This document shows positions 481 through 27,501 of a stretch of DNA of 64,000 nt, in pieces. The position numbers were made by a program, and so were the translations under genes. Below the pieces are notes generated by a model. That model saw nothing but the letters and a program-made list of their open reading frames with translations, was not told the DNA's origin and ran no database searches. Source of the DNA: Thermoproteus sp. CP80 (GTDB lineage: Archaea > Thermoproteota > Thermoprotei > Thermoproteales > Thermoproteaceae); assembly GCF_002077075.2 (NCBI RefSeq), contig NZ_LCWM02000004.1, forward strand, positions 1 through 64,000, given 5' to 3'. The first letter of the stretch is position 1, and each line of letters starts with the position of its first letter.

Positions 481-806
481 CCGAGGCGCCGCGATATAAA
501 GGATTCGACGCGCCGTCGGACGGCGTTTATAAAACGTCGTGCAGATTGCGCTTTACATCCATCGAAGCTGTCCACTGCTTCGGCGAGCTGCGTACGTAAA
601 GCGGGGATCCCGTTTATAAAACGGCAGCTTCCCGGCGCGGGCCGACGCCGAGACGTAAAAGCACGCAGATGCGCGCATCTGCACGCCCGGCGCACTTTAC
701 GTAGAAACAAGACGCGGCGACCCGTGCAGCGCAGTTAGACCTACATCACGCCGAAAGACGGATAGAAAAGCTTAAATGCCTATACATTCATGGTCCAAGA
801 AACCCG
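481..806 (+). promoter_or_regulatory. CRISPR leader with array promoter
   Basis: This stretch between cas6 and the first repeat has no convincing gene. It is less GC-rich than its surroundings and holds two TTTATAAAA motifs (near 527 and 612). A third TATA-like element, AGCTTAAATG (about 768-777), would start transcription close to 798, just before repeat 1. Repeat orientation (GAAAC end to the right) and the degenerate last repeat at 1278 both put the leader on this side. Confidence 0.6.
492..502 (-). promoter_or_regulatory. TATA box of cas6
   Basis: On the minus strand the bases read CCTTTATATC, centred 24 bases upstream of the cas6 ATG, the spacing expected for leaderless archaeal transcription. 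Confidence 0.55.
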
Positions 807-1301
807 GCATCTCCAATGGAGAATTGAAACTGGACTCAATGTGTCCAGCTTATACCACGGCTCGTAAATATGCCTCCAGCATCTCCAATGGAGAATTGAA
901 ACATATCAGCGCGGTCTAGGCCGTTATCCTGGCCAAGCTTTATACACGCATCTCCAATGGAGAATCGAAACTTCATACTCAACCACACCCACGTATACGA
1001 GCTCGTGTACCTGATCGGCATCTCCAATGGAGAATTGAAACATTCAGCGTGCTGAAGGAGATATCGAAGAGCATGCCGATACCGCATCTCCAATGGAGAA
1101 TTGAAACAAACCCAAAACCAAGCCCAAGCTCAAAACCAAGAACAGCATCTCCAATGGATAATTGAAACTGAGGGGGTTGAAAGGGCCTAAATACAGGCGA
1201 ATATATTCCAGGCATCTCCAATGGAGAATTGAAACCAATAATGCGCTCGGAGCCGCCCGCATAGTAGTAGAGCACGTGCATCTCCAATGGAGAATTGAAA
1301 T
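807..1301 (+). CRISPR. CRISPR array, 8 repeats of 24 bases and 7 spacers
   Basis: Repeats start at 807, 879, 948, 1018, 1084, 1145, 1212 and 1278, each 24 bases. They contain the partial palindrome CTCCAATGGAG and end in ATTGAAAC. Repeat 3 has T to C (AATCGAAAC), repeat 6 has G to T (GGATAATTG), and the last repeat ends in T instead of C. Spacers are 48, 45, 46, 42, 37, 43 and 42 bases. The decay sits at the right end, so the array is transcribed rightward. The divergent cas6 gene probably processes it. Spacer 5 (1108-1144) is an unusual A/C-rich run built from AAAACCAAG-like units. Confidence 0.98.
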
Positions 1302-3527: not shown

Positions 3528-4436
3528 TTATTTCATAAATAACATATTTACATATTTCTGGAATATATATGTATTGTAAATCATAAGAAGTCTGTTCTTA
3601 TCGCTCATGGTTTTTGCGTCGAGGATCTTCGTCAGCAGTTCCCTCTCGAAGGCGTCAGCTGTCCCCTCTACTAGCTGTCCAAGGGATGAGACGCTCGTCA
3701 GCGACGTCGTCTTTAGCCGGGCGAATCTCCCGCCTTCCCAAACCATCATTTCCTTCTTTGCCGCGGCTAATGTGGGGGTGCTCACGTCGACGCTATCTAC
3801 GTATTTAGCAACGCGCCTCAATATATCGATATTGGCCACGCCGAAAAGGTGCAGCCGCACCGATCTGCCCAACACGGCGCGTACTTCCTTCACCACCCTC
3901 TCGACGAACTCGACGTCGTTGCTTCTAGGCACGAGAGATCCGATCCCCACATATTTGGCCCCAAGCCTTCGGTAGAACTTGGCACACTTCGCGTACGACT
4001 TTACGTCCCAGCCCTGGACCACGAGCATGACCTCCCGCCCCAGCCGCTCCCCAATCTTCAGCGCAGCCTCGGCATTGACGAGATTCCTCTTAAACATCCT
4101 CTCCCTGCCCTCCCTATCCATATCCTCGATGAAGGGGTAGTCCTTCTGAACCAACACGTCAGAGCCAAGAAGATGTTGCAGATAGAGCACGTGGTACTGC
4201 GGCAAATCGGCCAAGAAGCCGGCGCGAGCGTGAAGCCAAGTCGTAAAGGAATCCACTATGAGCGTCCCTCCAAAGCCAAAATACCGCTTAAACCCGTCCA
4301 GGAGGACTCTAGATAGCTTCCATCTAGGCATTGAAAGCACTGACTTCAGAGAGACGACTATTCCATCCACGGGGAAAAACCTCCAGTAATGAGGATCTTC
4401 CGGCTCGGCATACCACGTGATGAAAAGCCTCGGCAT
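3528..4436 (-). CDS. Second TGT-like (tRNA-guanine transglycosylase fold) protein, 302 residues
   Basis: Last gene of the left-facing island operon, overlapping the ATPase gene by one base. The TIM-barrel signature of transglycosylases is visible: GTLIVDSF around D62, VVQGWD at 139-144, GIGSLVP at 164-170, HLFGVANID at 196-204, and VDVSTPT with D217 at the position of the nucleophilic Asp. The Zn site (CxCxxC...H) of the family is absent. Length suits a bare barrel. I infer a partner or paralogue of the DpdA-type enzyme encoded at 6042-7943, perhaps acting as a heteromer on DNA, because two such barrels are encoded in one operon. An inactive structural subunit or a tRNA-acting enzyme are alternatives. 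The C-terminal coding end is AT-rich. Confidence 0.65.
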   Translation of the reverse strand: MPRLFITWYAEPEDPHYWRFFPVDGIVVSLKSVLSMPRWKLSRVLLDGFKRYFGFGGTLIVDSFTTWLHARAGFLADLPQYHVLYLQHLLGSDVLVQKDYPFIEDMDREGRERMFKRNLVNAEAALKIGERLGREVMLVVQGWDVKSYAKCAKFYRRLGAKYVGIGSLVPRSNDVEFVERVVKEVRAVLGRSVRLHLFGVANIDILRRVAKYVDSVDVSTPTLAAAKKEMMVWEGGRFARLKTTSLTSVSSLGQLVEGTADAFERELLTKILDAKTMSDKNRLLMIYNTYIFQKYVNMLFMK

Positions 4437-5386
4437 TATACGTACTTCGACAACACATCCTTCGCCTTCTTCGCAGAGTCCAAGGCGCCGTTGAGAACCA
4501 ATATGTTCAACAGCTTAACAACCTCGCCTGGATTCCCCTCAGAAATGTCGTAAATAGCCTTAACGACCTCTCTATCCACCGAAGCCCTAACCCCCCTCCT
4601 CTCAAGTAGAAACCCCACGAACTTCTCTGTCTCCTCCAGCGTGAAAGGCCTTAGATGAACCATAAACGAAGAAAGGCGACGCGCCAGAGGAGGATAGGTG
4701 TTCAAAATGCCGTCCCATCCGGCGGGAGTCGTCGACGCTAGGAAGAACGCGCCGCCGGGCAGACTATCAATGAACATCCTGAGGTGCCTCAGGTAATGCA
4801 AGCGCTTAGGTTGCGGAATTGCGATTATGTCTTCCAACTCGTCAAAAAGAAAGATAAGCGGCACGCGGCCAGCCCTAGCGAGCCCCCACACTATTTTAAC
4901 CAGGTACTTAACCGCCAACTCGTCGTTTATTCTCGTGGAGATAAGCCCAAGCCTGCTCTTTATGTTCTGCGGAACGGCGTCGCCCAAAAGCCAAAGCTTG
5001 ATATACTTAGAGTCCTCTGCATCGCTCCCGGCGATCCTCAGGAGCCCTCCAAGGGGCTCCTCCACACGAGATGCGACCAGCTCGACCAGCTCCCTATCCT
5101 CAAGCAGAGCCCCCATTACGGCGTTATAGAAATTCAAGATGCTGACGCTCGGCGTGTCTACATAAATAGAAAAGCTCTTCACGTACCTCTTCCTGACGTG
5201 AGACGATAGGCGGAGGAGGACGTGAGTCTTGCCGAACCCATAGTTGCCGATCACTACCCCAGCGCCAGAGGAGCCCGTTGCCACAAACCTCACCACATTA
5301 GCCAACTCCTGGAGAACTCCATAGGCGTCGAAGAAGCTCTCAACCTCATCCTCTACAGGAACCGGAAGAAGCGTTCTGGTCCTCAT
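4436..5386 (-). CDS. P-loop AAA-type ATPase of the Dpd-like island
   Basis: A 316-residue ATPase. Walker A is GNYGFGKT (residues 47-54), Walker B LIFLFDELED (177-186, with D182 and E183), and a sensor-like ASTTP lies at 217-221. A lid-like helical C-terminus with GNPGEVVKLLN (284-294) resembles Orc/Cdc6-type and BREX-like ATPases. The start overlaps the upstream 231-residue gene by ATGA and the stop overlaps the TGT-like gene by one base, so translation is coupled. Bacterial dpd clusters contain a much larger ATPase, DpdH; this could be a functional counterpart, but I have no alignment to prove it. Probable role: energy-dependent recognition or loading step in modification or defence. Confidence 0.75.
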   Translation of the reverse strand: MRTRTLLPVPVEDEVESFFDAYGVLQELANVVRFVATGSSGAGVVIGNYGFGKTHVLLRLSSHVRKRYVKSFSIYVDTPSVSILNFYNAVMGALLEDRELVELVASRVEEPLGGLLRIAGSDAEDSKYIKLWLLGDAVPQNIKSRLGLISTRINDELAVKYLVKIVWGLARAGRVPLIFLFDELEDIIAIPQPKRLHYLRHLRMFIDSLPGGAFFLASTTPAGWDGILNTYPPLARRLSSFMVHLRPFTLEETEKFVGFLLERRGVRASVDREVVKAIYDISEGNPGEVVKLLNILVLNGALDSAKKAKDVLSKYV

Positions 5387-6078
5387 GTCTTCAACATGAT
5401 GTAGACATATCGCCTACCCCCAATTTCAAAACCTGCAACCTCGCCGGCAGGAGACCCGGTCAACACAATGTCGCCCTTCCTACGCGCCACAAATTCCCTA
5501 AACATCTCCTCCACCACGCGCCGCGGGAAGCGCAATTCCCTCTTAACTTCCTCCAAAAGATCTAAAATAGTGACATACTTACTCCACCTCCGCCTAGCCA
5601 ACTCTCTATATTTATCAAAAAGAACCTTTTCAAACATCCCCCAGAGCTCACCGCGCATGGGCATCCCAAGCCTCTCAACCTCCCTAGTCAATCTCAACAC
5701 AACATCTACCACCACCGCGTTGAATCCCGACAAAGCCACCAACTCGCTAGGTTGCGTAACCCCTCTGGAGATAAGCCCATAGACAACCCGGTAGGGCTCG
5801 AGCGCCTCCATAAATAGCTCGTGGATAGAGCCCCCATCGCCCCTCTCATAGGCAGAGACAAACCTGAGCCCTCTCTCAGTAACGCTGCCATCTTCACGTA
5901 TAAACCCAAGATTTAAGGCGGCTCTCCACAGCTCCCTAAGCCTTTTATCCTCGCCTACAGAGCCGCCTCCACCTATATAACGCAAAAATTCGTATAAGCT
6001 CTTCAGAGTAAACGGTCGCATGGAGAAGGCCAGCAGGTGCTTTAAATATCTTTTGTACCATCTGAAACTTCTAACCAA
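5383..6078 (-). CDS. Unrecognised protein with winged-helix-like segments, island operon
   Basis: Up to 231 residues. ATG at 6078 would overlap the dpdA-like gene by 37 bases; the in-frame ATG at 6021 (MRPFTLKSLYEFLRY) leaves a 20-base gap and is equally plausible. The product is basic and helical, with repeated helix-turn-helix-like stretches (residues 22-70 and 100-130) and a C-terminal beta hairpin (GFEIGGRRYVYIML). It ends with ATGA overlap into the ATPase gene. It may be the DNA-binding partner of that ATPase; DpdG of bacterial clusters is a possible analogue by position only. Confidence 0.7.
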   Translation of the reverse strand: MVRSFRWYKRYLKHLLAFSMRPFTLKSLYEFLRYIGGGGSVGEDKRLRELWRAALNLGFIREDGSVTERGLRFVSAYERGDGGSIHELFMEALEPYRVVYGLISRGVTQPSELVALSGFNAVVVDVVLRLTREVERLGMPMRGELWGMFEKVLFDKYRELARRRWSKYVTILDLLEEVKRELRFPRRVVEEMFREFVARRKGDIVLTGSPAGEVAGFEIGGRRYVYIMLKT

Positions 6079-7943
6079 CTTTCCAAACCTGTATATGTCT
6101 TTATAGCTATTTCACGTAATAGGGCTATCTGCCTAATTCTAGATTTCAGATTACCTGCCAAGATGTACCTAGCTCTGACGCCATCTGCGGTTATTGCTCT
6201 CTTCGGGAGAATGAGAATGGCATTCTCCATCCTCAAAAGCCTTCGTAGCACTCCCTCCACAGCGTAGGCGTATTCCCTGGGAAGCGCCACGATCACCAAG
6301 TCGTACTTCTTCGAACTCAACACCTTCAACAACTTATTCTCCACGCCAAGCCTCGCAGACCACTGCCTAATCCATCCTTTGAGCTTCCCCTTGAGAGTCG
6401 CCTCGTAGGGCACAATAGGCTCATTTTCGCCGATCAAGCCGTAACGTGCGCTAATAATATACACATCCACCTCCTTGTCTACACGCCTAAGAACGTCAGC
6501 GAGACTTCTAACCACCGCGAAGGAACCTCCATACATCTCCCTCGCAGGCTTTATGTAATTTCGCAGCACCTCTCTGTAGAGAGCCTCCTTCTCTATGTCG
6601 TGAGACGGCACGGTTAGGCCCCTTTCTCTTAGAACCGACACCACCTCTCCCCAAGGCACTCTCTTCTCCTCTGTGCAGTACGTCACTATGAGTACCGTGC
6701 GTGCACTCTTCAGAAGAGACTCCAGCTTCTTATCGCCTGAGGCCTCATCTATCTTTACGCCGCCGTCTCTCGGCACGGCAAATCTCGCCTCGAATCTTCC
6801 CGATCTCAACAGTTTGCTGAACACGTAAACATTGTGGAACCCCCTCCTCCTGTTTCTATTATTGCCCCTAAAAATCACCACATCCACACCTGCAGACCTA
6901 CAGACGGCGCAATCACAGCGCTTCCACGGCATGTCTCTCAAGGTCGCTACGTAGTACGGCAGATATCTCTCATGCCCCACGAGCTTAACGTAATCCCTAA
7001 CAGCCCCCCATACGTCATCAAAAGAGACAACCCCCCTATCGTACTCCCGCAGCTTCTTCAAAAGCAGGCGCGCTGCCTTCTCCACCTCAGGTCCCTTATC
7101 CACCACGCGGATAGCTGTATACGCCTTTCCATCCGCCGTAAGGTAGTTTCCGTGTTCACGCGTCCACGCCAGCCTAAGGACGGAAGAGCTGTCGAAGGAC
7201 ACCTCCGCTATATAATCGCTCAACTTGCTCAACAAAGGCAAGACCCCCAGACGCGTAACTCCAAGGAAATGCACCTTCTTGATGTCGCCCAAGCTCCTCA
7301 CCTCTGCGGTAAGCACCTCAACAAGCCGTTTCAAAAACTCTGTATCCCGCTTAGCGAGACCCCCCACTGCGAAGCTCCTGAAGCCGTAGCCATGTAGCTC
7401 CCTCAAGCTTTCCACATAATCCTCAATCGACACCCCCTGTATAGACCCCAAAAGCTCAAACCCGTAGCCCTCCCTCCTCCACAAGTCGAACATCTCCTTA
7501 GCCGCTCTCCTCGTGAACCCGATACGCCTCTCGGGATCCCCAAAAAACGGGATGTGGTCAAGAGTAACTCCAAAGTCGACCCCAAGAACTCGATAGTACT
7601 CCAACACCTCCTGCACGGTATACGGCGGCAACTCCCTATCGCGGTACTGCCAAGCTCCGCAGTCCCCGATGATCTGCATGCCATCTGGGAGCCTCATGAA
7701 CCCCCTAACCCCGCCCGCCCTCTTAATCTGCGCCAGCTTAGACTCAGAAAGCGTGGAGATAGACACCAACACGCCATCGACTACGTGGCCAACGAGCTCC
7801 CAAAGCCTCGCACCGTACGTAAACCGATCACGCCTATACCCCTCAGACTCCCTCTCACCGACGAAGTCAAACTTCGGATCGACAACATCATCCCAATCGG
7901 GTATGATAAACTTCAAAGAACCATTCCTCTTTGAAGAGGACAC
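6042..7943 (-). CDS. dpdA: DpdA-type 7-deazaguanine DNA transglycosylase
   Basis: DpdA proteins exchange guanine in DNA for preQ0, a 7-deazaguanine precursor. The N-terminus (KFIIPDWDDVVDPKFDF) and PPYTVQEVLEYYRVLGVDFG (107-126) are the DpdA signature as I know it. Catalytic elements of the TGT fold are present: GDCGAWQY (93-100, D94), SIQG (167-170), FAVGGLA (191-197) and SFD (D251, nucleophile position). The Zn ligands are C343, C345, C348 and H370. After the barrel, VYIISARYGLIGE (494-506) marks a DUF6884-like C-terminal domain. The 633 residues start with GTG at 7943, which sits 25 bases from a TATA box. It heads the left-facing operon. Archaea make preQ0 for archaeosine, so substrate should be available, though no que gene is in this window. 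An archaeosine tRNA enzyme is less likely: the DpdA N-terminus is present and no PUA domain is seen. Confidence 0.85.
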   Translation of the reverse strand: MSSSKRNGSLKFIIPDWDDVVDPKFDFVGERESEGYRRDRFTYGARLWELVGHVVDGVLVSISTLSESKLAQIKRAGGVRGFMRLPDGMQIIGDCGAWQYRDRELPPYTVQEVLEYYRVLGVDFGVTLDHIPFFGDPERRIGFTRRAAKEMFDLWRREGYGFELLGSIQGVSIEDYVESLRELHGYGFRSFAVGGLAKRDTEFLKRLVEVLTAEVRSLGDIKKVHFLGVTRLGVLPLLSKLSDYIAEVSFDSSSVLRLAWTREHGNYLTADGKAYTAIRVVDKGPEVEKAARLLLKKLREYDRGVVSFDDVWGAVRDYVKLVGHERYLPYYVATLRDMPWKRCDCAVCRSAGVDVVIFRGNNRNRRRGFHNVYVFSKLLRSGRFEARFAVPRDGGVKIDEASGDKKLESLLKSARTVLIVTYCTEEKRVPWGEVVSVLRERGLTVPSHDIEKEALYREVLRNYIKPAREMYGGSFAVVRSLADVLRRVDKEVDVYIISARYGLIGENEPIVPYEATLKGKLKGWIRQWSARLGVENKLLKVLSSKKYDLVIVALPREYAYAVEGVLRRLLRMENAILILPKRAITADGVRARYILAGNLKSRIRQIALLREIAIKTYTGLESWLEVSDGTKDI

Positions 7944-7950
7944 AAAAACT

Positions 7951-7972
7951 GTTAAAAATAACTACTTTAAAA
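7951..7972. promoter_or_regulatory. Interleaved divergent promoters of the island
   Basis: GTTAAAAATAAC (7951-7962) is centred about 25 bases upstream of the helicase ATG at 7982. CTTTTAAAGT on the minus strand (7963-7972) is centred about 25 bases upstream of the dpdA GTG at 7943. Each box lies inside the other operon's promoter region, so the two operons probably compete or are co-regulated. The spacing also fixes both start codons. Confidence 0.6.
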
Positions 7973-7981
7973 GCAACTGAC

Positions 7982-10858
7982 ATGTTACCGGTATCACTGG
8001 TTTCGAATGATCACGCCCTTTCACAAGCCTATAAACTACTTCAACAAACTTGCCCATATTATGCAAAACCGAACTTTTTTGAAAAATATGTGCTTAACAG
8101 CGTATTGTCCTATCTTGAAGAGAAGGAACAAGATCTCATTCTAGGTATGCGATATGACGAGTGGATAAGAATACGCAAAGAAAATGCCGAGAAGATAAAG
8201 GAGCACATTGTAAAAAATTTAGCTAAACTAATATATGCCTGCAATCCACAAACAGCAGGGGACGTAGAGGAGGACCTCAGGAAACTCGTTAGCGGCAGTG
8301 ACGTCGTAGAGAAATCCATCTGTTATCTCTACCTCTTCGGCATCTACAACGACTGCATAAGCAGATATATCCTTATCAGGACCGACAATGGGCAAGTACC
8401 GGATTACTCATTTTATCACAACAAGTACGACCAAAACTATGCCTGCAATGAAGCGCAGAAAGTATTTCCCGACTGTATAAAAGTCCTTCAAGACGCTTTA
8501 AATAACGGCTTTGATGTAAGAACAAGATTTATCGAAATAGCGAAGGATCTATACCTAGTCAAGCAAAGATTCCCCGATAGATCAATCTTTGAATCCTATC
8601 TACTTATAGACAGAGTATTTGCATACGCGCATCCCCGCGAACTCCCTATAGGCCGGCACCCCCCTGGGGAGCTCTGCAAAGAATTAGAAAACATGGCACG
8701 ACAATTCTTTGTCGCGTATCATCAATACCTAGGCATACCCTGCGACAAAGTCGAAGAAGAATTCAGGGACTACTGGGATATCTTTTGCCGCTTCATAAAC
8801 AGCGTGGGCATAGAGCTTTATTACAGCTTTCAGAAAAACGGAATAAGACGGGCACTAGAGAAACTGAGAAAAACTCTCAGCAAAAAAGAGCCCGACTACT
8901 TGGTAATTCAAGCGCCCACAGGTAGCGGAAAGACAGAGATTATGCTCTACACAATCATTCTTGCGGCCTTAGCTAGAAAGATGATCTTTCATAAACATGG
9001 GCTGGGAGAGTCTAAGGCTAATACACCGGTTGCGCTCATAATCTACCCCAGGCGTGCGTTAGCAAATGATCAAATGAGCCGGTTAGTCAAATACCTCCAA
9101 GTCATTAATCAACATCTAAAAAATCGACAATTGCCGCCAATAACAGTAACCATAAAATACACCGAAATTCGGCCAAAGGAGGATATAGAGAGCCGACTAC
9201 CCCAAGCCTTCGAAGAGCTAAAAAATGCAACTGCTAACGAAGTTGAAATAGTGCTACCCCACGGAGTCAAAGCGTATCTAGTCCAAGAAGGTAATCACGC
9301 CTTCGTTGAGTTACGTTTCATAACATGTCCCGATGGTACATCGTTTCCGAGACTCCGTGTCCTTGATAACAATCAAATTGACGAGATAGTACTCTGTGGA
9401 AACACAAAATTAGATTTCATCACGTTGACACGCAAGTCGACGTATGGCGATGTTCACATCACGCTATTCGAAACACTTAGGGGGCACCTGTTGAGCGGAT
9501 TCCGAACCCTCTTTGGCGTAAAGAGAGGCAATATCTTCGACCATCCTATTGTCATCGCGTTAGATGAAATCCACACATATACGGATATACCAGGCGTGAG
9601 ATACGCCTTTATGATCAGAAGAGTTCTAAACAAGATACGCTGGCAAAGACAGAGGGCGCTTAAAAACACAGAAGCGGGCTTCGGAGCATTGGTAATGGGA
9701 ATGAGCGCTACAATTCCAAGGCCTCACGAATTTCTCAGTGCATTGTTTATAGACAAGCGAATAAATGAAAAAACTGTAAAAGACTACTTGATTGAAGTAG
9801 AAGAAGACGAAAAGATACCGCTAGGTACCGAGTACTTCTTCATCGTAGTTCCCACGCGGAGAGCCCCCGTAGACGCTCTTTCTGTTAGCATACAGACACT
9901 AATGACGACTTTCTACAATACCCCCTCACTTCCTAAAAATGCTATATATACAAAAAAAGCTCTTATCTTCGTTGATGAACTAAATGTGTTATATAGACTA
10001 AAAAACGAGCTATACGACCCCCCATACTTTCGGGAAGGTGCTCTCAAACGACTCTATAATGGTAAATATGTCGGCCTACAAGACCTCCGCAATCCATATT
10101 TCCCTAACTTATTTAATACTACTGTGAGAGAGCTCCGTGATGATGCGAAGGTTATAGATGCAATTAGTAAAGGTTATATTTCTAGCGTTACTATGACAAA
10201 TAGTTGGAAATATGGAGAGCTGTGGTGGGGTTATATGCTTGATAGTTTTATAAACAAAAGTGAAAGTACCACAATCTTTAATAAAGTAATCGAGTTTTCC
10301 AGCCGTCATCGCGACAATATCAACGAAGCATATGTGGTTGTTTCAACGAGTAGCTTAGAAGTAGGAGTTGACTACTCGGATGTGGTGTTGATCTACCAGC
10401 ACGGCGCACCAAGGACGCTATCCGCTTTAATTCAAAGGGCTGGCAGGGCAGGCCGTCGCGTTTACGAAAATCCCCTAATGCGGATCATTGTAGGCATACA
10501 GCTCTCGCCGGATGTGCCTCATCAAGCCCATCTTTTTGAGTTATTCACCACGGCGCAGGGAAAACTCAGAGATCTGCTAAGTAACGACATGATATTTTTA
10601 CCAACCGAAAAATCGGAAGAGGTGCATAAGCAACTACTTGTGGAGCTACTCCTCGAATATTATGTTCTCAATAGAGAAAATCGCAAAAAGATACTATCTG
10701 GAAAATGGGACGAATGCGAACTACTTAGATTAAATTACGATAAAGTTAAAAGTTATGTTTTATATATATTTAAAGATATATATGACCAACAAAAACTTGA
10801 AAATCTATATCAGCAAGTTATGAATGAATTAAATGAGAGGTTACAATGTCAGCCATGA
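7982..10858 (+). CDS. Superfamily-2 helicase, DrmA/DpdJ-like
   Basis: A 958-residue protein from ATG 7982 (an upstream TTG at 7931 lies before the TATA box and is rejected). Walker A is APTGSGKT (311-318), the Walker B/DEAH-type motif is DEIH (528-531), motif V-like SSLEVGVDYSDVV precedes motif VI QRAGRAGRR (818-826). A roughly 300-residue N-terminal helical region and a long insertion between motifs are typical of helicases in defence islands. It overlaps the DUF1998-like gene, which is followed by a PLD gene: the DrmA-DrmB-DrmC order of DISARM. Dpd clusters also carry helicases plus a PLD protein (DpdJ, DpdK). Codon use is AT-rich, unlike flanking genes. Likely role: translocation on invading DNA. 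Confidence 0.85.
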   Translation: MLPVSLVSNDHALSQAYKLLQQTCPYYAKPNFFEKYVLNSVLSYLEEKEQDLILGMRYDEWIRIRKENAEKIKEHIVKNLAKLIYACNPQTAGDVEEDLRKLVSGSDVVEKSICYLYLFGIYNDCISRYILIRTDNGQVPDYSFYHNKYDQNYACNEAQKVFPDCIKVLQDALNNGFDVRTRFIEIAKDLYLVKQRFPDRSIFESYLLIDRVFAYAHPRELPIGRHPPGELCKELENMARQFFVAYHQYLGIPCDKVEEEFRDYWDIFCRFINSVGIELYYSFQKNGIRRALEKLRKTLSKKEPDYLVIQAPTGSGKTEIMLYTIILAALARKMIFHKHGLGESKANTPVALIIYPRRALANDQMSRLVKYLQVINQHLKNRQLPPITVTIKYTEIRPKEDIESRLPQAFEELKNATANEVEIVLPHGVKAYLVQEGNHAFVELRFITCPDGTSFPRLRVLDNNQIDEIVLCGNTKLDFITLTRKSTYGDVHITLFETLRGHLLSGFRTLFGVKRGNIFDHPIVIALDEIHTYTDIPGVRYAFMIRRVLNKIRWQRQRALKNTEAGFGALVMGMSATIPRPHEFLSALFIDKRINEKTVKDYLIEVEEDEKIPLGTEYFFIVVPTRRAPVDALSVSIQTLMTTFYNTPSLPKNAIYTKKALIFVDELNVLYRLKNELYDPPYFREGALKRLYNGKYVGLQDLRNPYFPNLFNTTVRELRDDAKVIDAISKGYISSVTMTNSWKYGELWWGYMLDSFINKSESTTIFNKVIEFSSRHRDNINEAYVVVSTSSLEVGVDYSDVVLIYQHGAPRTLSALIQRAGRAGRRVYENPLMRIIVGIQLSPDVPHQAHLFELFTTAQGKLRDLLSNDMIFLPTEKSEEVHKQLLVELLLEYYVLNRENRKKILSGKWDECELLRLNYDKVKSYVLYIFKDIYDQQKLENLYQQVMNELNERLQCQP

Positions 10859-13488
10859 AACGATCAGTCTATATAGAACTCTTGAAGAATCTTAAGGTAC
10901 TGAGGTACTACGTCCCGGATAAGCTATTTGCTGAGTCAAATCTTCCCCAAGTCAGAATCTTCTTAGGCCCAATACAAGGTGGTTGCAAGGTTAGTAGCGG
11001 GGCCAAATATCTTACCTCAGAGGATGTTTCACTTGCTTTTTCGTCGGCTGGTTACTTACCTGGCAAACCAACTTTCAGAACGAAATATGGTGTAATGATA
11101 CCTCTGAACAACGATAATATATATATAATTCACAAAGATCTTGTTACAAAAATAGATAATTACTATCAGTGTAAATTTAAATCGCCGCCTAGTACAATAT
11201 CACTTCCCGATGAACTTATATATGTTGCCACTATACTTGGAGCTGGACAAGTTAGATTATGTTCCAGTACGGAATCTATCAATGTGATTAGACCTATGAC
11301 TACCGCCGAATGCTATAATTGTGTTTTTCTACCAAGTGATACAAAGGCACATATCCCCATAGACCGTTTATTTGGCGGTGTTGATTATTTCCACGTCTAT
11401 CTTTCCTCTAGTAACTCATATAGTAGGCACTTTATTTATTTGGAGTCAAGTTCGTATCATCCTGTTGGTGAACTTGATATTACTGATTCAGCTACTAAGT
11501 CGCTAATATTCAAGTTGCTAATATTCAATGATGTTCTTGCACATCATCTCATCTATGCTGTGGATGTTGATGCTAAGATACGTGGATATTATTGTTCGCC
11601 TAATGCTCAGCAATGTAAAACAGCAAAAGCGCTACGTCAGGGTTCCTGTGTTCGATTACCGCGTAGTGTTGCGCAGAATGGAAGACAGGTTAAAGGAATT
11701 AAAACACGTAAATTACAGTTTGTAAAGGTTTTTGTTGATGATAAAGTAGAACAAAAAAAGGTAATACCTGCCGCGGTAGGCTATGGTATTACCAATACTT
11801 TCCTCCTTGAATTTCATATGAAAGATAAATTCAACGAAATTCTGCCAGTAATTTGTCAAATAGTTTCTGAACAATCTATAAGAGATAGAATAACTCTTAG
11901 TTTGTTATATAAGAAACTAAGTGTAAATACGAGTATAATTAATTTTATTAAACATATTCTTTCTTATGATTTGGTGATATCATATCACTTTTCAAAAATG
12001 GGATTTGTGAGAGTCGACCAATTTATTAAATATATATTCTTACTAAATGATTTGTTCTTACACCGTCTCATGATCGACATTGTCGCACTATCTAATTCAC
12101 CAGAGGTTGTTAAGAGAATACTTGACAGTTTAAAAAATGGCTTAGATAACTTACGGACAGACAAAGTACAATTATTACGTTATTTAGTATTTACCACCCG
12201 GGACAATACGCTGGGAATTTTTACAGATAAAAAATCAGCGGAGAGTAAGATAGATAGGGACAATTTCAACGGGATTAATCTGCGGCTACATAAGTTGTTA
12301 GAAAGGCAGAAACAAGTTCCCGGAAATGTATTAAAAAATGGTGATTGGCGTTGTGGTGTTCTATTAGATTTTATTCGACATACATATAGCCATCATTTGG
12401 TAAAAGTAATTTCACAAAGCGCGAATGTGGACTCTACTAAATTAATTGAAGGTTATGTAGAGGGAGAGCAGCAACCTATACTCATCATTGAACGTGAAAG
12501 AGGAGGTCTTGGTATCCTACGAGGTGCGATAGATGAATACGGAAAAGATGCCTATAGGGCGTATCGAGATCTTATTCTGTCGTTTGGAAAATGTCTAGTA
12601 GGAACGCCTGAGGATGTACTGCATTTTATATTGGCCGATCCCAACTTCCGTAAAAGACTTTGCGAAGCTAAACCACATGAACTAGCCAGAGTTATTGAGG
12701 AGTTTGTACGGGATCACATGGAGCTACTTCTGTTACCTGAAGAGCTTACCGAAACGGTAAGGCTGTGGCATTCTATTCGTATGGAGGCGCAACGACTTGT
12801 AGAGTTACTTCCACAGGAGAAATTACGCAACGCCATTCGACCCGACTGTGCCTTACTGAAGGAGATCCATGAAGGTAGATATCAACTTGAGAAGACTATT
12901 TATCGTTTTCCAGAACTTGATGAACTTATTATATATCTTCTATTAAATATGCAAAAAGGACAGGTATTGCGCTCAATAGTAGAGGAGCTCCTAGAACGGA
13001 GTCTTCAAGTATCTGGCAAATCTAGCCAGCTTATGCAGATTTACAATAACAAGGATAACTACATAGAACTATTTCTAGACGATGTGAGAAGTGTCCTAAG
13101 AACTGGCTGTGGAGCCCGCGGTACGGTTCCCCGCATATGTGCATCTAGGCGGAACGGCAGATATCCCCGTGATGTGGTGTATGCAGTTAGGGCTTTAGGC
13201 AGAATAATGCGTGGCATGTTGCTGAGATTGGCCTTGCTTACATGCAACTCTGCTTGTGGTCACTGTTATGTCAACACAAGATCTTGTAGCAGGTTCTCTG
13301 CGCCGTTCATCCAAGCGAGGACTCTTGACAGAAGAGTTGCAAAAATCGTCGCGTCGGAGTTCGTGAAACTTAAGTTTAACGGCATTCAGAACCTCTACAG
13401 TCCGGATTTTGAGCCTGACGTGGTGGCTAGGCTGAAAAAGGGTCACTATTCCAAAGTGAACCTAGAAATACCAAGGAAAGAGACTTAA
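10846..13488 (+). CDS. DUF1998-like (DrmB-like) zinc protein, 880 residues
   Basis: A large protein overlapping the helicase stop by 13 bases. A GAGAGG sequence four bases upstream supports ATG 10846; ATG 10855 (ATGA overlap) is the alternative. A glycine motif RERGGLGIL (G553, G554) is followed near the C-terminus by C800, C804, C807 and C814 (TCNSACGHCYVN) and then TLDRR. That is the four-Cys plus LDR pattern of DUF1998, the domain defining DISARM DrmB. The N-terminal two thirds are not recognisable. GC content is the lowest of the island, suggesting recent transfer. The Cys cluster superficially resembles radical-SAM spacing but lacks CxxxCxxC. It probably works with the helicase in recognising unmodified or foreign DNA. 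Confidence 0.7.
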   Translation: MSAMKRSVYIELLKNLKVLRYYVPDKLFAESNLPQVRIFLGPIQGGCKVSSGAKYLTSEDVSLAFSSAGYLPGKPTFRTKYGVMIPLNNDNIYIIHKDLVTKIDNYYQCKFKSPPSTISLPDELIYVATILGAGQVRLCSSTESINVIRPMTTAECYNCVFLPSDTKAHIPIDRLFGGVDYFHVYLSSSNSYSRHFIYLESSSYHPVGELDITDSATKSLIFKLLIFNDVLAHHLIYAVDVDAKIRGYYCSPNAQQCKTAKALRQGSCVRLPRSVAQNGRQVKGIKTRKLQFVKVFVDDKVEQKKVIPAAVGYGITNTFLLEFHMKDKFNEILPVICQIVSEQSIRDRITLSLLYKKLSVNTSIINFIKHILSYDLVISYHFSKMGFVRVDQFIKYIFLLNDLFLHRLMIDIVALSNSPEVVKRILDSLKNGLDNLRTDKVQLLRYLVFTTRDNTLGIFTDKKSAESKIDRDNFNGINLRLHKLLERQKQVPGNVLKNGDWRCGVLLDFIRHTYSHHLVKVISQSANVDSTKLIEGYVEGEQQPILIIERERGGLGILRGAIDEYGKDAYRAYRDLILSFGKCLVGTPEDVLHFILADPNFRKRLCEAKPHELARVIEEFVRDHMELLLLPEELTETVRLWHSIRMEAQRLVELLPQEKLRNAIRPDCALLKEIHEGRYQLEKTIYRFPELDELIIYLLLNMQKGQVLRSIVEELLERSLQVSGKSSQLMQIYNNKDNYIELFLDDVRSVLRTGCGARGTVPRICASRRNGRYPRDVVYAVRALGRIMRGMLLRLALLTCNSACGHCYVNTRSCSRFSAPFIQARTLDRRVAKIVASEFVKLKFNGIQNLYSPDFEPDVVARLKKGHYSKVNLEIPRKET

Positions 13489-14279
13489 TGAACTTAATAT
13501 GTAAGGTGGCAAGTTCTCCCACCTCTTCGCTAAGTGTGGAGAGCTTGATCCGGAGGTTTCTTCATGAGACGTTTGACAGTAAGTATCTCTATATAATTTC
13601 TCCGTGGATTACGCTATTTGAGTTTGAAAGGTCATTTATCCATCTTCCGTTTGTAGAGACCAGAAGAATCGATGATGTTTTTCGCGCATTTGTTTTTGCC
13701 GGCATTGACGTGAGGATATTGATGCGTTGCGTAGATGACGCTATTGATATTGAGCTCTTGAGACTTCTGCGTCTATTGCGCAAAAATCGTGGAATATTCC
13801 AGGAGGTGTTTGGGGCATCTCGGCAATATATCGCCAGCGAAACTTTGAAATATATAGTTAGCCACATCGACAGTTTGATTAAGACTATAAAAATAGTCAA
13901 TGCACTCAGGGACACACTTGGCGAAAATCTTCGTTTTGACATACCCGCCTCGGAATGGTACCAACGGCTTCATACCAAGCTATATCTCAACGATAGGTCT
14001 GCCATTATAGGCTCTGCCAACTTCACTAGGAGCGGTATATTGACTGATGGTAACTGGGAATGTCTGCTCCACTTCACTAAAGACACTAAGCTTTACGAAG
14101 ACGCGCTCAAAGCCGCACGTAGCCACTTTGATGTAAGTAAAGGCTTTGATGAGTGTGAGAGGGCAACTCTGTTTCTAGTCAATAGGTTGGAGTTGCTGGA
14201 CAAGCCGGTGACCGGTCTTGAGGAGTTGGAGGGTTACCTAACAGAGTTGTATCAAGAAATATCGTCAACAATAGCCTAG
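13488..14279 (+). CDS. Phospholipase D-family nuclease, DrmC/DpdK-like
   Basis: A 263-residue protein starting at an ATG that shares its A with the stop of the previous gene (TAATG). One HKD motif is complete: H162, K164 and D169 in LHTKLYLNDR, followed by IIGSANFTRSG and NWECLL, the standard PLD-nuclease context. A single motif per chain implies a dimer, as in other one-HKD nucleases. It is the third gene of the helicase/DUF1998/PLD triad and the counterpart of DISARM DrmC and Dpd DpdK. It should be the DNA-cutting or processing component. It ends tail-to-tail with a four-base overlap with the opposite gene, marking the right end of the AT-rich island. Confidence 0.88.
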   Translation: MNLICKVASSPTSSLSVESLIRRFLHETFDSKYLYIISPWITLFEFERSFIHLPFVETRRIDDVFRAFVFAGIDVRILMRCVDDAIDIELLRLLRLLRKNRGIFQEVFGASRQYIASETLKYIVSHIDSLIKTIKIVNALRDTLGENLRFDIPASEWYQRLHTKLYLNDRSAIIGSANFTRSGILTDGNWECLLHFTKDTKLYEDALKAARSHFDVSKGFDECERATLFLVNRLELLDKPVTGLEELEGYLTELYQEISSTIA

Positions 14280-15578: not shown

Positions 15579-18500
15579 GTGTCTGGGCTTTATGAACGTG
15601 TCGTAGAGGCGGCTTACCCCCGCGTGAGGGAGCTCGTGGGCCGCCCCGGCGTCTTCCTCCTGGCTCCGCCGGGCTCCTCCCGCGGGTACATGCTGGAGAG
15701 GCTCTTGAGGGAGGACGAGGCGGAGGGCGCGGCGATCAGGGCCTACGCCTACCCGAGGCTCGCGGGGGAGCTACGGGCCAGGGGCCTGGCCGTGGAGGAC
15801 CTGCCCAGCGCCGAGGAGCTCGGGAAAGGCGCCGAAGAGCGCGTCGTCGTGGCTGTGGAGAGCTCCATCCAGGCCGTGGAGCTGAAGGAGAGGCTGGGGA
15901 AGAGGGCCGAGCTGATCTACCTGCCGAAGCTCTTCAAAGAGGCGGCCAAAGACGTCGACAAGAAGCTCCTGGAGGTGGCTGAGGTGGAGCACAGGGGGCT
16001 CGGCGCGGGCATCTCGCCGAAGCTCCTCAGGCCGGGGGAGGCCGAGGAGCTCAGGAGGGGCCGGGACGCCCTCCTCGCCCTGAGCCCAGGCGCCGTGGGG
16101 TTTAGAGATGTGGCGAAGGAGGCTCTGGTAAGCCTCCGCTTTAAGATGGCATCGGCCCTTCTGGCGGAGCTCCTCGCCCCGGCCTTTGCGGTTTCTGCGG
16201 TCCTCCAGGCGGCGGACCCCCGCGCCGCTGCGCCTCTCGTAGCGTTTCTTGCGAAGGCGGCGGGGGTGGGTAGGGAGGAGCTGGCGGGCTTCGCCGCCCG
16301 CCTCCTGGAGCTCCTCGCCGGGAGGAGGAAGCCGCGGGATAAGGTCGTTGCGGGCTTCGCCGGGCTCGTGAGGAGGGCCCTCGACGCCGAGCCCTACGTT
16401 GACGACGACCGCTACGAGGCGGTCGTGGACCAGGTGGCGCTGGAGTGGGGCATGGACGTCGCGGCCTTCAAGGCCCTTGTCGGAAGCCTAGCCGCCCTAG
16501 CCAGAGGCGAACTGGTCACCAAGGAGGAGCTCAGCCGGGAGCTCGCCCAACACGTGAAGGGGGGAGAGCTGGAGAAGATCGAAGAGGCCATAAGACAATT
16601 GGTGGAGGGCAAACTAGCCGAGATAGAGAAGAGGCTGGAGGAGGTCAGGAGGGGGCTCGATGGTGTGGAGGAGGGCCTAAAGAGGAAGGGGCTCCCCATC
16701 CGCATCCTCTCGGTAGAGGAGGTGGAGGCTGGCCAGCTCTACGACAACTTCCGGGCGAAGGGCGGCACGCCGGCGGTTTCTGTGGCAGAGGGGGTGTTTC
16801 GGCTGGTTGAGACCAGCCGGTTTAAGGAAGTGGTTCAGGAGGTGCTGAGGAGGCTCGCCACATACGGCGTGGTGGTGTTGCGGGGGCCGAAGGGGGTTGG
16901 GAAATCCACCTTGGCGGCCTATGCGGCTTGGCTGGCCCTCCGAGGCGGAGTTGCCGGCTACGCGGCGAGGATCCAGAAGATGGAGAGAGGTCAGCGGGTG
17001 GCGTTGAGAGATGTGTTAGACGCAGTTGAGGAGGGGCGGCTGGTCGCCGTCTTTGACCCGTCTCCTCTTGAGTTCTACATAGAGCCAGGCGCATATGCCG
17101 GGGCGACGCAGGAGGCGGCCGCCGCGGCGCCTGCCACGCTTGAGGAGTTGCTGAAATTTGCTGAGGAGAACAGGGGACGGGGCCTGGTGCTGGCGGTTAT
17201 CCCCGACGACCTCTACGAAGAATTAGACGGCGAGGTGAAGAGGAGGGCTGAGGGATACGTCCTCCCCATCGACCTTAGAGATGCGGAGTTCCTGACGGAG
17301 GTCATATACGAATACTCCGGCTGCAGAGAAACGCCGAGGGAAAAGTTAAGAATACTGGCGGGGGATGTGGCACAATTCGACGGCGGATACACGCTAGCCG
17401 CCAGATACGCCGGCCTGTGGCTTAGGAGCAATGGGTGTAGCGTTGGAGATATAGAGAGGACTGTAGAGGCTTCGAGGAAGGAGCCGAAGCTCTTCTTCGC
17501 CCACTACATCTGGCGCGTGCTGCTTCGGGGCAGCGGCGACTTGGCCATGCAGGCCGCGGTGCCGCTCCTCCTCCACGCCTACTTCGGCCCGGTGCCGGTG
17601 GGCGTGACGTACGTCGCGAAGGCGGCGGATGAGGGGGGCAGGTGGCGTCTTTCAACGCCGGAGGGGCTAGAGGGCGACGACCTGCAGTCGCTGAAAAAAG
17701 ACGCGCTGGAGCCCATAGCCAATTGGCTCGCCCAGCGACACGAGGACCTCGTGGAGGAGGCGCTGAAAGACCTCGTCGGCCTAAACGGCGAGGAGGCGAG
17801 GGAGCAGTACAGAGAAGACTTGGGCGACCTAATCGAGAGACTGGACTGGGCCCGCGGCGAGGTGCTTAAAGAAGGCGACAAAGTCCTCGCCGAGCTCGGC
17901 ATCCAAGAGAAGAGACGGGGATTGGGGACAGCTCTGCTGCTCTTAGTCGCCAGGAGGCTCGCCGCTGTTTTCAAGAGCGGCGAGAGTAGGCGTTGCTGGC
18001 GCAGGGTGGCCTTCATCGCTGGCCACGCGCTGGCTGGATATCCCAAGTTGCCTAAGAGGAAGCAGTTCCCAAAGGGCGTTGCAAAGACCCTGGGCGACTC
18101 CCTGAAGTCCTGCGCCGTGGATGACTACTTGACGATAGACGGCAAGATACCGCCGCTTTCAATATACATGATTAGGTTTCCGTATTACGTTGAGGTGCTG
18201 TACGCCAGAGATCTTTCGCGGATTCGGAAGATAAGGGAAAAGATAAGCGTCCTCTCCCCCCTTGCAGACGCGGTGGCCGTAAACACCGCGAAGAAAACGG
18301 CGGAGGAGTTGCTGGCAAGGTGGAGAAGGGAGGGATCGCGCTTGGCCGGGGCCTTTTATGTCTTGGGTCTGGCGGCATTGGCCGCAGAGGCTAAGGTAGA
18401 TGGGAAGACGGCTAAGTTGTTGCTCTATGTGGCGCCTTTCGCGATACAAGGGGCGGCTCATTCAGCGGCGGTGTTGTCGGTTTTGGCGGCGTTGCGTCCT

Positions 18501-20033
18501 CTGGGCGAGAAGGCGCCGCATAGATACGTCGTTGCGCTGACCGCCGCCTCGGAGCCGGGGCCGCTAGGTCAAAAAACCGTGCAATACATCTACGACGCCT
18601 TGCGGCAATTCAGGGACCGCCTCCTTAAGACGAAGCGCTTCTGGCCTCTGGTGGAGGCTATTGTCGCCTACTCAAACCTATTGAGAAATCACTCGGCACA
18701 CATCAAGGATCGCTGGAAGGAGACTGTGGCTGATATGTGCCGGCTGTACGGCGAGGTTAGAAGGCGTAGCGCCGCAACGACGCCGGACAGCGGCCTCTCG
18801 GCGCAACGCTTGCTCGACGCTGTGGCTAGGGCTTATGTGCTGGCTGTGGCTCTCGAAAGCTACGACTTGGCGCTACATGTGAAGGACCGTTGCGGCTTAA
18901 GCGACTTCGAAAGAGAGGTCGAAGCTGTGAGGAGTGTGTTGGACAAAGCGGCGGCCCGTCCAGAGGAGTTGAAAATAATTATGGAAAACGAAGACTTCGC
19001 CGATTGGGTGAGGGTACGCAACATCACACGCGACGCCGGGTTTATGGTCAGGAATTTTAGAAGTTGGTTCATGTATGTGCTGACTCGCTACAAGCTAAGT
19101 CATGCCCTTGATGATAAAGGCGAGTTAGACGAGAAAAAGCTGGAAGAGACGGCAGAAGAGTTCAAAAAAGTGGCTGAGATGCGCAGAGAGCTGGAGGACT
19201 GGGGAAACTACCTCATCGCCTGCGGTTTGGCTCTTAAGGCCCGCGTACTCGTCGCAAAGAATTTGGAGGAGCTTCTCGAGAGAGCTAAAGGCTTCTGGGA
19301 GCTGTGGAGTGAGGCGGAGGAACACCTTGAACCGACCGCCATTAATTTAGCGACAGCGGCTTTCATACTAGGCGAGTGTCTAGTCTACCTGGCTGCCTCT
19401 GGTAACAAGGAGATGGCAGAGGAGTTGTTGAAAAAGTCGCGGTGGTTGCTGGACTACGACCGGGAGGTCTCCGTGGTTACTCGGCTTATGCTTAGGGTTC
19501 TCGGCGTGGGGGAGGGGGCGAGGCAGGAAGAAGTTGTGGACGTGTTTAAGCCGCGGCTTTCACCGGAGTTTCGGCCGGCTTTATTGATGCTGGCTGGCCC
19601 TCTGCAGAAAGACGAAGCTCTTGAAGAATGCGACAAATTGTCCAACGCCCTACCACCCAAGCCCGAAGCCTGCGTTAACGCCGTGGCGGCCGCCGCAGGC
19701 GATCGAGAAGCCGCCGAGATGTTGAGATCAGTTTTAAGATCAGATATAGAGGAACTAGTGTCTGAGGCGCGTCTCTTGCTGGGTAAGGCGGATGGGAGGA
19801 CTCTAGTGGAAGTCCTGGCACCTATACACTCTCTGGCACAGTTTGCCTTCACGTTGCTGGCGGCTGTAGAGGGGAGGATCGACGCGGTTAAGCTACACGG
19901 CCTGAGGGGCTCTGCGAGGTTTAAGAAACCCCTACCTCGGCGGCTATTCCGCGCCGTCTACGAGAACTGCGACGACTTAAACAGCGAGGGGTGCAGGATG
20001 GCCCTGCTGAAGCTGTACTACTACCACCTCTAG
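15579..20033 (+). CDS. Giant STAND/NACHT-like P-loop ATPase, 1484 residues
   Basis: An N-terminal region contains a weak P-loop-like APPGSSRGY (about 29-37). A predicted coiled coil (about 330-375, GGELEKIEEAIRQLVEGKLA) leads into a clear NTPase domain: Walker A GPKGVGKST (436-444) and Walker B RLVAVFD (D493). From about 650 to the end the protein is helix after helix, as in TPR/ARM-type sensor arrays. N-terminal effector, central ATPase and C-terminal helical repeats is the STAND plan used by Avs and NLR-like defence ATPases; I infer such a role because of the neighbours. The N-terminal domain is not recognised. GC content drops in the second half (about 18100-19850). The tail of a decayed copy lies at 15295-15501. 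Confidence 0.7.
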   Translation: MSGLYERVVEAAYPRVRELVGRPGVFLLAPPGSSRGYMLERLLREDEAEGAAIRAYAYPRLAGELRARGLAVEDLPSAEELGKGAEERVVVAVESSIQAVELKERLGKRAELIYLPKLFKEAAKDVDKKLLEVAEVEHRGLGAGISPKLLRPGEAEELRRGRDALLALSPGAVGFRDVAKEALVSLRFKMASALLAELLAPAFAVSAVLQAADPRAAAPLVAFLAKAAGVGREELAGFAARLLELLAGRRKPRDKVVAGFAGLVRRALDAEPYVDDDRYEAVVDQVALEWGMDVAAFKALVGSLAALARGELVTKEELSRELAQHVKGGELEKIEEAIRQLVEGKLAEIEKRLEEVRRGLDGVEEGLKRKGLPIRILSVEEVEAGQLYDNFRAKGGTPAVSVAEGVFRLVETSRFKEVVQEVLRRLATYGVVVLRGPKGVGKSTLAAYAAWLALRGGVAGYAARIQKMERGQRVALRDVLDAVEEGRLVAVFDPSPLEFYIEPGAYAGATQEAAAAAPATLEELLKFAEENRGRGLVLAVIPDDLYEELDGEVKRRAEGYVLPIDLRDAEFLTEVIYEYSGCRETPREKLRILAGDVAQFDGGYTLAARYAGLWLRSNGCSVGDIERTVEASRKEPKLFFAHYIWRVLLRGSGDLAMQAAVPLLLHAYFGPVPVGVTYVAKAADEGGRWRLSTPEGLEGDDLQSLKKDALEPIANWLAQRHEDLVEEALKDLVGLNGEEAREQYREDLGDLIERLDWARGEVLKEGDKVLAELGIQEKRRGLGTALLLLVARRLAAVFKSGESRRCWRRVAFIAGHALAGYPKLPKRKQFPKGVAKTLGDSLKSCAVDDYLTIDGKIPPLSIYMIRFPYYVEVLYARDLSRIRKIREKISVLSPLADAVAVNTAKKTAEELLARWRREGSRLAGAFYVLGLAALAAEAKVDGKTAKLLLYVAPFAIQGAAHSAAVLSVLAALRPLGEKAPHRYVVALTAASEPGPLGQKTVQYIYDALRQFRDRLLKTKRFWPLVEAIVAYSNLLRNHSAHIKDRWKETVADMCRLYGEVRRRSAATTPDSGLSAQRLLDAVARAYVLAVALESYDLALHVKDRCGLSDFEREVEAVRSVLDKAAARPEELKIIMENEDFADWVRVRNITRDAGFMVRNFRSWFMYVLTRYKLSHALDDKGELDEKKLEETAEEFKKVAEMRRELEDWGNYLIACGLALKARVLVAKNLEELLERAKGFWELWSEAEEHLEPTAINLATAAFILGECLVYLAASGNKEMAEELLKKSRWLLDYDREVSVVTRLMLRVLGVGEGARQEEVVDVFKPRLSPEFRPALLMLAGPLQKDEALEECDKLSNALPPKPEACVNAVAAAAGDREAAEMLRSVLRSDIEELVSEARLLLGKADGRTLVEVLAPIHSLAQFAFTLLAAVEGRIDAVKLHGLRGSARFKKPLPRRLFRAVYENCDDLNSEGCRMALLKLYYYHL

Positions 20034-26240: not shown

Positions 26241-26242
26241 GT

Positions 26243-26650: not shown

Positions 26651-26672
26651 CGCTATATATCCTACATAGCGC
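26650..26672. other. Perfect 7-bp inverted repeat at a gene end
   Basis: GCGCTAT (26650-26656) and ATAGCGC (26666-26672) flank a nine-base A/T-rich loop, directly at the stop of the preceding gene. It could be an operator or an RNA hairpin; there is no T-run after it, so a terminator role is not obvious. Confidence 0.45.
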
Positions 26673-26955: not shown

Positions 26956-26966
26956 TATTCGACGGC

Positions 26967-27497: not shown

Positions 27498-27501
27498 CCG
27501 G

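What the first reader, a model, noticed from the sequence alone, without database searches (positions are those of the whole stretch)
3528..14279. Dpd/DISARM-like hybrid: DNA 7-deazaguanine enzyme beside a helicase-DUF1998-PLD triad
A DpdA-type transglycosylase with intact D94, D251 and C343/C345/C348/H370 shares a divergent promoter with a helicase, a DUF1998-like protein and an HKD nuclease. The latter three have the order and motifs of DISARM DrmA-DrmB-DrmC, but no DNA methyltransferase is present. A base-replacing enzyme would be the self-marking partner instead. The island is AT-richer than both flanks, as expected for acquired DNA. Dpd clusters known to me are bacterial; an archaeal version reduced to seven genes would be new to me.
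Basis: partly seen in the sequence, partly recalled or inferred. Interest (0 to 1): 0.93.

Follow-up and report, generated by a model that had tools for sequence, protein, structure and literature searches.

The report
Archaeal Dpd-type DNA-base restriction-modification island
A heat-loving archaeon carries an immune gene cluster that probably swaps guanines in its own DNA for a 7-deazaguanine base and attacks DNA without the mark; it belongs to the bacterial Dpd kind, but with a split helicase and a second base-swapping enzyme set where Dpd's DpdB should be, and a cultured strain carries the same genes.

Summary
The seven genes are real and form two divergent operons in an AT-rich island of a Thermoproteaceae-type genome. 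The Dpd half of the reading holds. 6042-7943 is a DpdA (273.7 bits against a cut-off of 200) fused to a DpdC-like domain; it groups with DpdA, not archaeosine TGT, and the genome has its own archaeosine TGT and Gat-QueC. The DISARM half fails. The helicase and the 880-residue protein align with the N- and C-terminal halves of a single DpdJ (profile E 4e-71 and 4e-21), DrmA forms a separate clade, and the nuclease scores better as DpdK. So this is Dpd with DpdJ cut in two. The new part is the rest of the DpdA operon: a second DpdA-like transglycosylase, a predicted DNA-binding protein and a BrxD-type ATPase. The set recurs in Vulcanisaeta, Caldivirga and a Pyrodictiaceae MAG, and the triad beside DpdA also in haloarchaea. 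No locus examined has both DpdB and a second TGT (7 and 18 loci), so the triad may replace DpdB. Vulcanisaeta distributa IC-017T, a cultured type strain, carries all seven genes, so the DNA-modification claim can be tested directly. This genome lacks a large ATPase that all four full relatives have.

The parts
6042..7943 (-). DpdA, DNA-guanine transglycosylase (aa 9-384), fused to a DpdC-like/DUF6884 domain (aa 413-565)
   Evidence: NF041059 DpdA 273.7 bits, cut-off 200; PADLOC DpdA 250.9 bits, DpdC E 4.9e-10; PF21818 34.2 bits, cut-off 30; DpdA clade 98/98
6834..6917 (-). Zn site C343-C345-C348-H370 of DpdA
   Evidence: invariant in six relatives
6249..6707 (-). DpdC-like (DUF6884) domain of the fusion, aa 413-565
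5383..6078 (-). 231-aa conserved protein, predicted helical with a winged-helix-like N-terminal part; overlaps dpdA by 37 bp
   Evidence: A5 alignment; homologues in L015 and haloarchaea E 1e-27 or better; AF2 pLDDT 81 but no significant PDB fold match
4436..5386 (-). BrxD/ORC-type P-loop ATPase (GNYGFGKTH, DELE)
   Evidence: PF10923 BrxC_BrxD 41.3 bits, cut-off 22.2; alignment A4
3528..4436 (-). TGT2, second TGT/DpdA-like protein of 302 aa; both active-site Asp equivalents (D62, D217) kept, Zn site lost
   Evidence: PF01702 53.4 bits; only PDB sequence match 7ui4, a DNA-guanine transglycosylase; D62 and D217 invariant, aligned to DpdA and Tgt
7931..10858 (+). DpdJ N-terminal half: YprA-family SF2 helicase (likely start 7982)
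   Evidence: PADLOC DpdJ 151.7 bits; hhalign to bacterial DpdJ columns 1-806 of 1605, E 4e-71; DrmA outside at 100/100
10846..13488 (+). DpdJ C-terminal half with a DUF1998/MZB-type signature
   Evidence: hhalign to DpdJ columns 796-1570 of 1605, E 4e-21; 3 of 5 family members hit the PADLOC DpdJ model, best E 0.0012
12379..13287 (+). DUF1998-like signature: HTxSHH, GGxG, C800-x3-C804-x2-C807-x6-C814
   Evidence: invariant in five relatives; similar Cys spacing in DrmB and intact DpdJ
13488..14279 (+). DpdK-like PLD (HKD-type) nuclease
   Evidence: PADLOC DpdK E 8.1e-8 against DrmC 1.2e-5; NF041068 31.6 bits, cut-off 100; H162, K164, N168, GSAN invariant

Best explanation
This is an archaeal restriction-modification system of the Dpd kind. 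Modification operon: DpdA exchanges guanine in duplex DNA for preQ0 from the cell's archaeosine pathway, and its fused DpdC-like domain hydrates the nitrile, so self DNA should carry 7-amido-7-deazaguanine (dADG). The wHTH-like protein, BrxD-type ATPase and second transglycosylase (TGT2) load and position DpdA on DNA, the job of DpdB in bacteria. Restriction operon: a DpdJ helicase made of two chains (motor plus OB/DUF1998 canopy) engages unmarked DNA and the DpdK nuclease cuts it. Shown by sequence: gene identities, DpdJ collinearity, the conserved set, DpdB absence. Inferred: the chemistry, the role of the triad, restriction. Dpd kinship is very likely (about 0.9); that the triad stands in for DpdB is about 0.4.
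For: DpdA passes the equivalog cut-off and the archaeal DpdAs form one clade (97/98). Catalytic and Zn residues are intact. The genome has its own archaeosine TGT and a Gat-QueC, hence preQ0 synthesis. A queuosine-precursor transporter family gene sits beside dpdA in two Vulcanisaeta clusters (the V. distributa one is below cut-off), and preQ0 genes sit beside haloarchaeal and G249 relatives. DpdJ halves collinear with intact DpdJ, DrmA excluded. Gene set conserved in five genomes. Triad beside DpdA in Thermoproteota and Halobacteria and, with a Zn-bearing TGT, in G249. DpdB/DndB absent from all six archaeal genomes, control positive, and never beside a second TGT in the loci examined.
Against: No chemistry or phenotype is shown. 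DpdB absence and TGT2 presence rest on very few independent switches (2 pairs on supported branches, no significance). Second TGTs are not one clade (p-AU 0.0125 and 0.0008), so 'TGT2' may be several recruits. The window lacks the large ATPase that four relatives have, so restriction here may be impaired. DpdK and DpdJ scores are below equivalog cut-offs. The genome is 77% complete.
Confidence: 0.72

Rival explanations
1. Degenerate or modification-only island: DNA is marked (or nothing is), but restriction is lost because the large ATPase and coiled-coil genes upstream of dpdJ in relatives are missing here.
For: 1087-1123-aa ATPase in G086, G270, G359 and G381 but no match in G000; in Vulcanisaeta and Caldivirga it precedes dpdJ in the operon.
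Against: All seven ORFs are full length with intact motifs; gene overlaps show no decay. G000 is only 77% complete.
Confidence: 0.15
2. Dpd/DISARM hybrid as first proposed: a DISARM DrmA-DrmB-DrmC module whose methyltransferase is replaced by DpdA.
For: Split helicase plus DUF1998 protein plus PLD has DISARM's order; weak DrmA and DrmC scores.
Against: DpdJ beats DrmA in HMM score, tree and profile alignment (4e-48 against 1.5e-5; C-half 1e-11 against 0.003). Split DpdJ also occurs in Halorientalis and apparently in a Deinococcus dpd island, so splitting is not diagnostic of DISARM.
Confidence: 0.03
3. A BRIGADE system (Dpd/ARMADA hybrid of haloarchaea) in a hyperthermophile.
For: Same TGT2-p231-ATPase triad and archaeal DpdA clade in haloarchaeal loci.
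Against: BRIGADE is described as usually having two YprA helicases, one or both ARMADA-like, and only in halophiles (PMC12458937). The seven-gene cluster here has one, of the Dpd branch.
Confidence: 0.07
4. A tRNA- or RNA-modifying island: the two TGTs act on tRNA.
For: TGT fold; TGTs normally act on tRNA (established knowledge).
Against: Separate archaeosine TGT, DpdA clade, company of a DNA helicase and nuclease.
Confidence: 0.03

Closest known systems
Bacterial Dpd system (dpdA-K; e.g. Enterobacter pPOL9A L032, Paenibacillus sp. 37 L030)
   Same: DpdA, DpdC-like domain, DpdJ, DpdK, link to preQ0 genes or transporter
   Different: DpdJ is two genes; DpdB missing; no match to DpdD, E, G, H, I models; a second TGT, a wHTH-like protein and a BrxD-type ATPase instead (Paenibacillus too has a second TGT); DpdA-DpdC fused in the opposite order to the bacterial fusions
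BRIGADE (haloarchaeal Dpd/ARMADA hybrid, PMC12458937)
   Same: archaeal DpdA clade; in the haloarchaeal plasmid loci seen here, the TGT2-p231-ATPase triad
   Different: single Dpd-branch helicase, no ARMADA-like YprA, hyperthermophilic Thermoproteota, no preQ0 genes in the locus; haloarchaeal TGT2 keeps the Zn site
DISARM (DrmA-DrmB-DrmC + methyltransferase)
   Same: gene order helicase, DUF1998 protein, PLD nuclease; common YprA ancestry
   Different: no methyltransferase; helicase and C-half are DpdJ by score, tree and alignment
BREX-related capture (BRC) system with TGT (PMC12839542)
   Same: TGT combined with BREX-type ATPase and no DpdB
   Different: no HerA, PglZ, DUF4007 or GNAT among the seven genes; DpdJ/DpdK effector instead

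Membership tests
Dpd | DpdA with TGT catalytic and Zn residues | tested here: met
   273.7 bits, cut-off 200; residues invariant; clade
Dpd | DpdB (DGQHR/DndB-like partner) | tested here: not met
   none in locus or in six genomes, controls ring; described as dispensable in certain clusters (PMC12839542)
Dpd | DpdC | tested here: met
   as C-terminal domain of DpdA, E 4.9e-10
Dpd | DpdJ helicase | tested here: met
   split in two. Below the NCBIfam full-length cut-off
Dpd | DpdK PLD nuclease | tested here: inconclusive
   best family hit, E 8e-8, but 31.6 bits against cut-off 100
Dpd | DpdD-DpdI restriction genes | tested here: not met
   no such hits for the seven proteins apart from a weak generic-helicase DpdF match of the helicase; a large ATPase in DpdH's place exists in relatives only
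Dpd | 7-deazaguanine in genomic DNA; restriction of unmarked DNA | not testable with these tools
   needs nucleoside MS and transformation or virus challenge
DISARM | DNA methyltransferase | tested here: not met
   none among the seven proteins
DISARM | DrmA helicase | tested here: not met
   DpdJ 151.7 against DrmA 55 bits; outside DrmA 100/100
DISARM | DrmB (separate DUF1998 protein) | tested here: not met
   DUF1998-type signature present but aligns to DpdJ C-half (E 1e-11) far better than DrmB (0.003); no DrmB model hit
DISARM | DrmC PLD with N-terminal 4-helix bundle | tested here: inconclusive
   DrmC E 1.2e-5, weaker than DpdK; helix bundle not tested
BRIGADE | two YprA helicases, at least one ARMADA-like | tested here: not met
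   one helicase in the cluster, on the Dpd branch
Archaeosine tRNA TGT | groups with arcTGT; passes TIGR00432 | tested here: not met
   28.5 bits against cut-off 350; separate clade

The most novel reading that the evidence does not exclude
Archaea run a DpdB-independent DNA base-exchange machine: DpdA-DpdC plus a second, Zn-less or Zn-bearing transglycosylase, a DNA-binding protein and a BrxD/ORC-type ATPase, exchangeable with DpdB across bacteria and archaea. TGT2 would be a pairing partner for DpdA (as QTRT2 is for QTRT1 in eukaryotes, from own knowledge) or a second enzyme acting on the opposite strand.
Probability: 0.35. Interest if true: 0.75.

Novelty: new variant of a known kind. Interest (0 to 1): 0.57.

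Why it matters
It would extend 7-deazaguanine DNA restriction-modification to cultured hyperthermophilic archaea, which already make preQ0 for tRNA archaeosine, and point to a three-protein substitute for DpdB, whose role in bacteria is poorly understood. It also shows that the DISARM-like split of a YprA helicase arises repeatedly in Dpd loci, so gene order alone should not be read as DISARM.

Tried and rejected
Pfam gives no DUF1998/MZB match for the 880-aa protein, its AlphaFold model is poor (pLDDT 42) and PDB sequence search is empty; motif and profile-profile evidence were used instead. p231 fold search found nothing significant. Searches of viral contigs for TGT2 and DpdA relatives were empty. 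A first TGT tree used wrongly trimmed bacterial DpdAs (N-terminal DpdC domain kept); it was redone with DpdA domains only, same conclusion. The AU tests of second-TGT monophyly were run on that first tree and not repeated. A sign test of DpdB/TGT2 exclusivity has no power (2 pairs). hhalign of the 880-aa family to the full-length archaeal DpdJ set failed (probability 0.04), while the bacterial set worked; the helicase tree fits this, placing the window closer to bacterial DpdJ. Key Dpd papers (Thiaville 2016, Yuan 2018, Gedara 2023) are not in the library, so DpdB's role is cited through PMC12839542.

Full report
Observation. The seven ORFs lie as stated, in two divergent operons with overlapping or abutting genes, in an island of 35-58% GC between flanks of 62-73%. 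The two halves differ too: 50-58% on the DpdA side, 35-44% on the helicase side. The genome (G000, 1.56 Mb, 80 contigs, 77% complete) has the truncated RNaseP-T RNA; its order mates include Vulcanisaeta and Caldivirga, so it is a Thermoproteaceae-type archaeon; I was not given a name.

Gene identities. 6042-7943 passes the NCBIfam DpdA equivalog cut-off (273.7 bits, cut-off 200) and carries a DpdC-like/DUF6884 domain at its C-terminus. D94, D251, C343, C345, C348 and H370 are invariant in six relatives. 7931-10858 is DpdJ-like (151.7 bits; DrmA 55). 13488-14279 is a PLD protein nearest DpdK. 4436-5386 is a BrxC/BrxD-type ATPase. It keeps both Asp residues that align with the active site (D62, D217) and has lost the Zn site. 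5383-6078 has no known family; the model is helical with a winged-helix-like N-terminal part, without a significant PDB match.

Not the tRNA enzyme. In a tree of 47 TGT-family proteins the DpdAs form one group (98/98) and archaeosine TGTs another (98/94); archaeal DpdAs (Thermoproteota, G249, haloarchaea) are one clade within DpdA (97/98). The genome has a separate archaeosine TGT (524 bits, cut-off 350) and a Gat-QueC (glutaminase plus QueC domains).

Not DISARM. Profile-profile alignment puts the helicase family on columns 1-806 and the 880-aa family on columns 796-1570 of a 1605-column alignment of intact bacterial DpdJ (E 4e-71 and 4e-21): DpdJ cut in two. The 880-aa family has the DUF1998-type pattern HTxSHH, GGxG, CxxxCxxCx6C, invariant in five members; Bell et al. 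note that canonical Dpd lost these cysteines while some deep Dpd-like systems keep them (PMC12458937). Against DISARM sets from Thermoproteota (L058-L060, with a likely methyltransferase gene nearby in two), scores are far weaker: helicase to DrmA 1.5e-5, C-half to DrmB 0.003; DrmA is split off at 100/100. All 15 plasmid records matching the helicase carry genes annotated DpdJ, DEAD/DEAH helicase, AAA or hypothetical, or unannotated; none is annotated DrmA. A split DpdJ also occurs in Halorientalis (929 + 710 aa; collinearity by hhalign) and apparently in a Deinococcus dpd island (1027 + about 736 aa, MZB trace). DISARM's order here is thus shared ancestry plus splitting. That DpdJ and DrmA are in one clade is known (PMC12458937).

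Relatives. Among 398 sampled Thermoproteota genomes six have DpdA over cut-off; the TGT2 family is in 4 of 81 genomes of the class. All seven genes occur in G086, G270 and G359; G381 has six on a contig that starts inside dpdJ-C, the helicase part lying off that contig. G086's contig is 2,374,137 bp, the length published for Vulcanisaeta distributa IC-017T (PMC3035369). In both Vulcanisaeta loci a queuosine-precursor transporter family gene lies beside dpdA (76 bits, cut-off 51, in L016; 41 bits in L019). Vulcanisaeta and Caldivirga also have a large ATPase before dpdJ, with another gene of about 430 codons between; the ATPase is in all four relatives but not in G000.

The triad. TGT2, p231 and the ATPase recur next to DpdA in eight haloarchaeal plasmid loci (L031, L034, L036, L037, L039, L040, L041, L067; in L034 the ATPase reads as two frames) and in G249, often with preQ0 genes. 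In haloarchaea and G249 the second TGT keeps the Zn site. Bacterial second TGTs occur in Paenibacillus, Picosynechococcus, Nostoc and Deinococcus loci. Of 26 loci with DpdA or a DpdA-like protein, 7 have DpdB, 18 a second TGT, none both, one (L045) neither. Cyanobacterial DpdAs of one clade show both states (L029, L035 second TGT; L033, L038 DpdB). DndB/DpdB is missing from all six archaeal genomes with positive controls. But switches are few (3 and 2 on the tree), so exclusivity is a hypothesis, and second TGTs are not one clade.

Mechanism. preQ0 from the archaeosine pathway is inserted into DNA by DpdA and converted to the amide by the fused DpdC-like domain (established for bacterial homologues, cited in PMC12839542 and PMC11888242); the triad replaces DpdB; DpdJ-N/DpdJ-C with DpdK restricts unmarked DNA. 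Only gene identity and conservation are shown here. Loss of the large ATPase may mean that restriction in this strain is altered.

Prior knowledge. Archaeal Dpd-like systems (BRIGADE, haloarchaea) are described (PMC12458937). The GATOR-GC census required dpdAB and bacteria (PMC11888242), so it would miss this variant. In the papers searched I found no report of a Thermoproteota Dpd system, of the triad, or of its relation to DpdB; the supplements of the YprA paper could not be read. Verdict: a new variant of the Dpd kind, testable in a type strain.

Noticed in passing
window 803-1301: CRISPR array of 8 repeats (core GCATCTCCAATGGAGAATTGAAAC, spacing 61-72) about 2.2 kb from the Dpd island.
   Followed up: no
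window 57157-57364: Truncated archaeal RNase P RNA (RNaseP-T, 194.8 bits), typical of Thermoproteaceae.
   Followed up: no
window 15579-20033: 1484-aa STAND/AAA-like NTPase ORF directly beside the island (PF13191, PF20720 sub-threshold); may be another defence gene.
   Followed up: partly
window 22928-40307: HerA/FtsK-like ATPase (23971-25980, PF01935), membrane protein ORFs and a giant open frame of 4239 codons (27588-40307): perhaps an integrated conjugative or viral element.
   Followed up: partly
L019:12081-12482, L016:12537-12935, L018:490-894: A 132-134-aa gene follows TGT2 in three relatives but not in the window; the L019 copy has a weak GIY-YIG match (E 0.05).
   Followed up: partly
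L064 (Deinococcus taeanensis p_TS293_6): Dpd island with dpdE, dpdF, dpdH, an apparently split DpdJ, a degenerate DUF6884-TGT protein and a TGT2-like protein, no DpdB.
   Followed up: partly
L068 (Haladaptatus sp. YSMS36 plasmid): Three TGT-family genes in about 13 kb with PLD, DEAD helicase and DUF6884 genes: a multi-transglycosylase locus.
   Followed up: no
DpdA of L029, L030, L033, L035, L038: Bacterial DpdA fusions carry the DpdA domain at the C-terminus (residues about 280-700, DpdC-like part first), the opposite order to Thermoproteota, so the fusion arose at least twice.
   Followed up: partly
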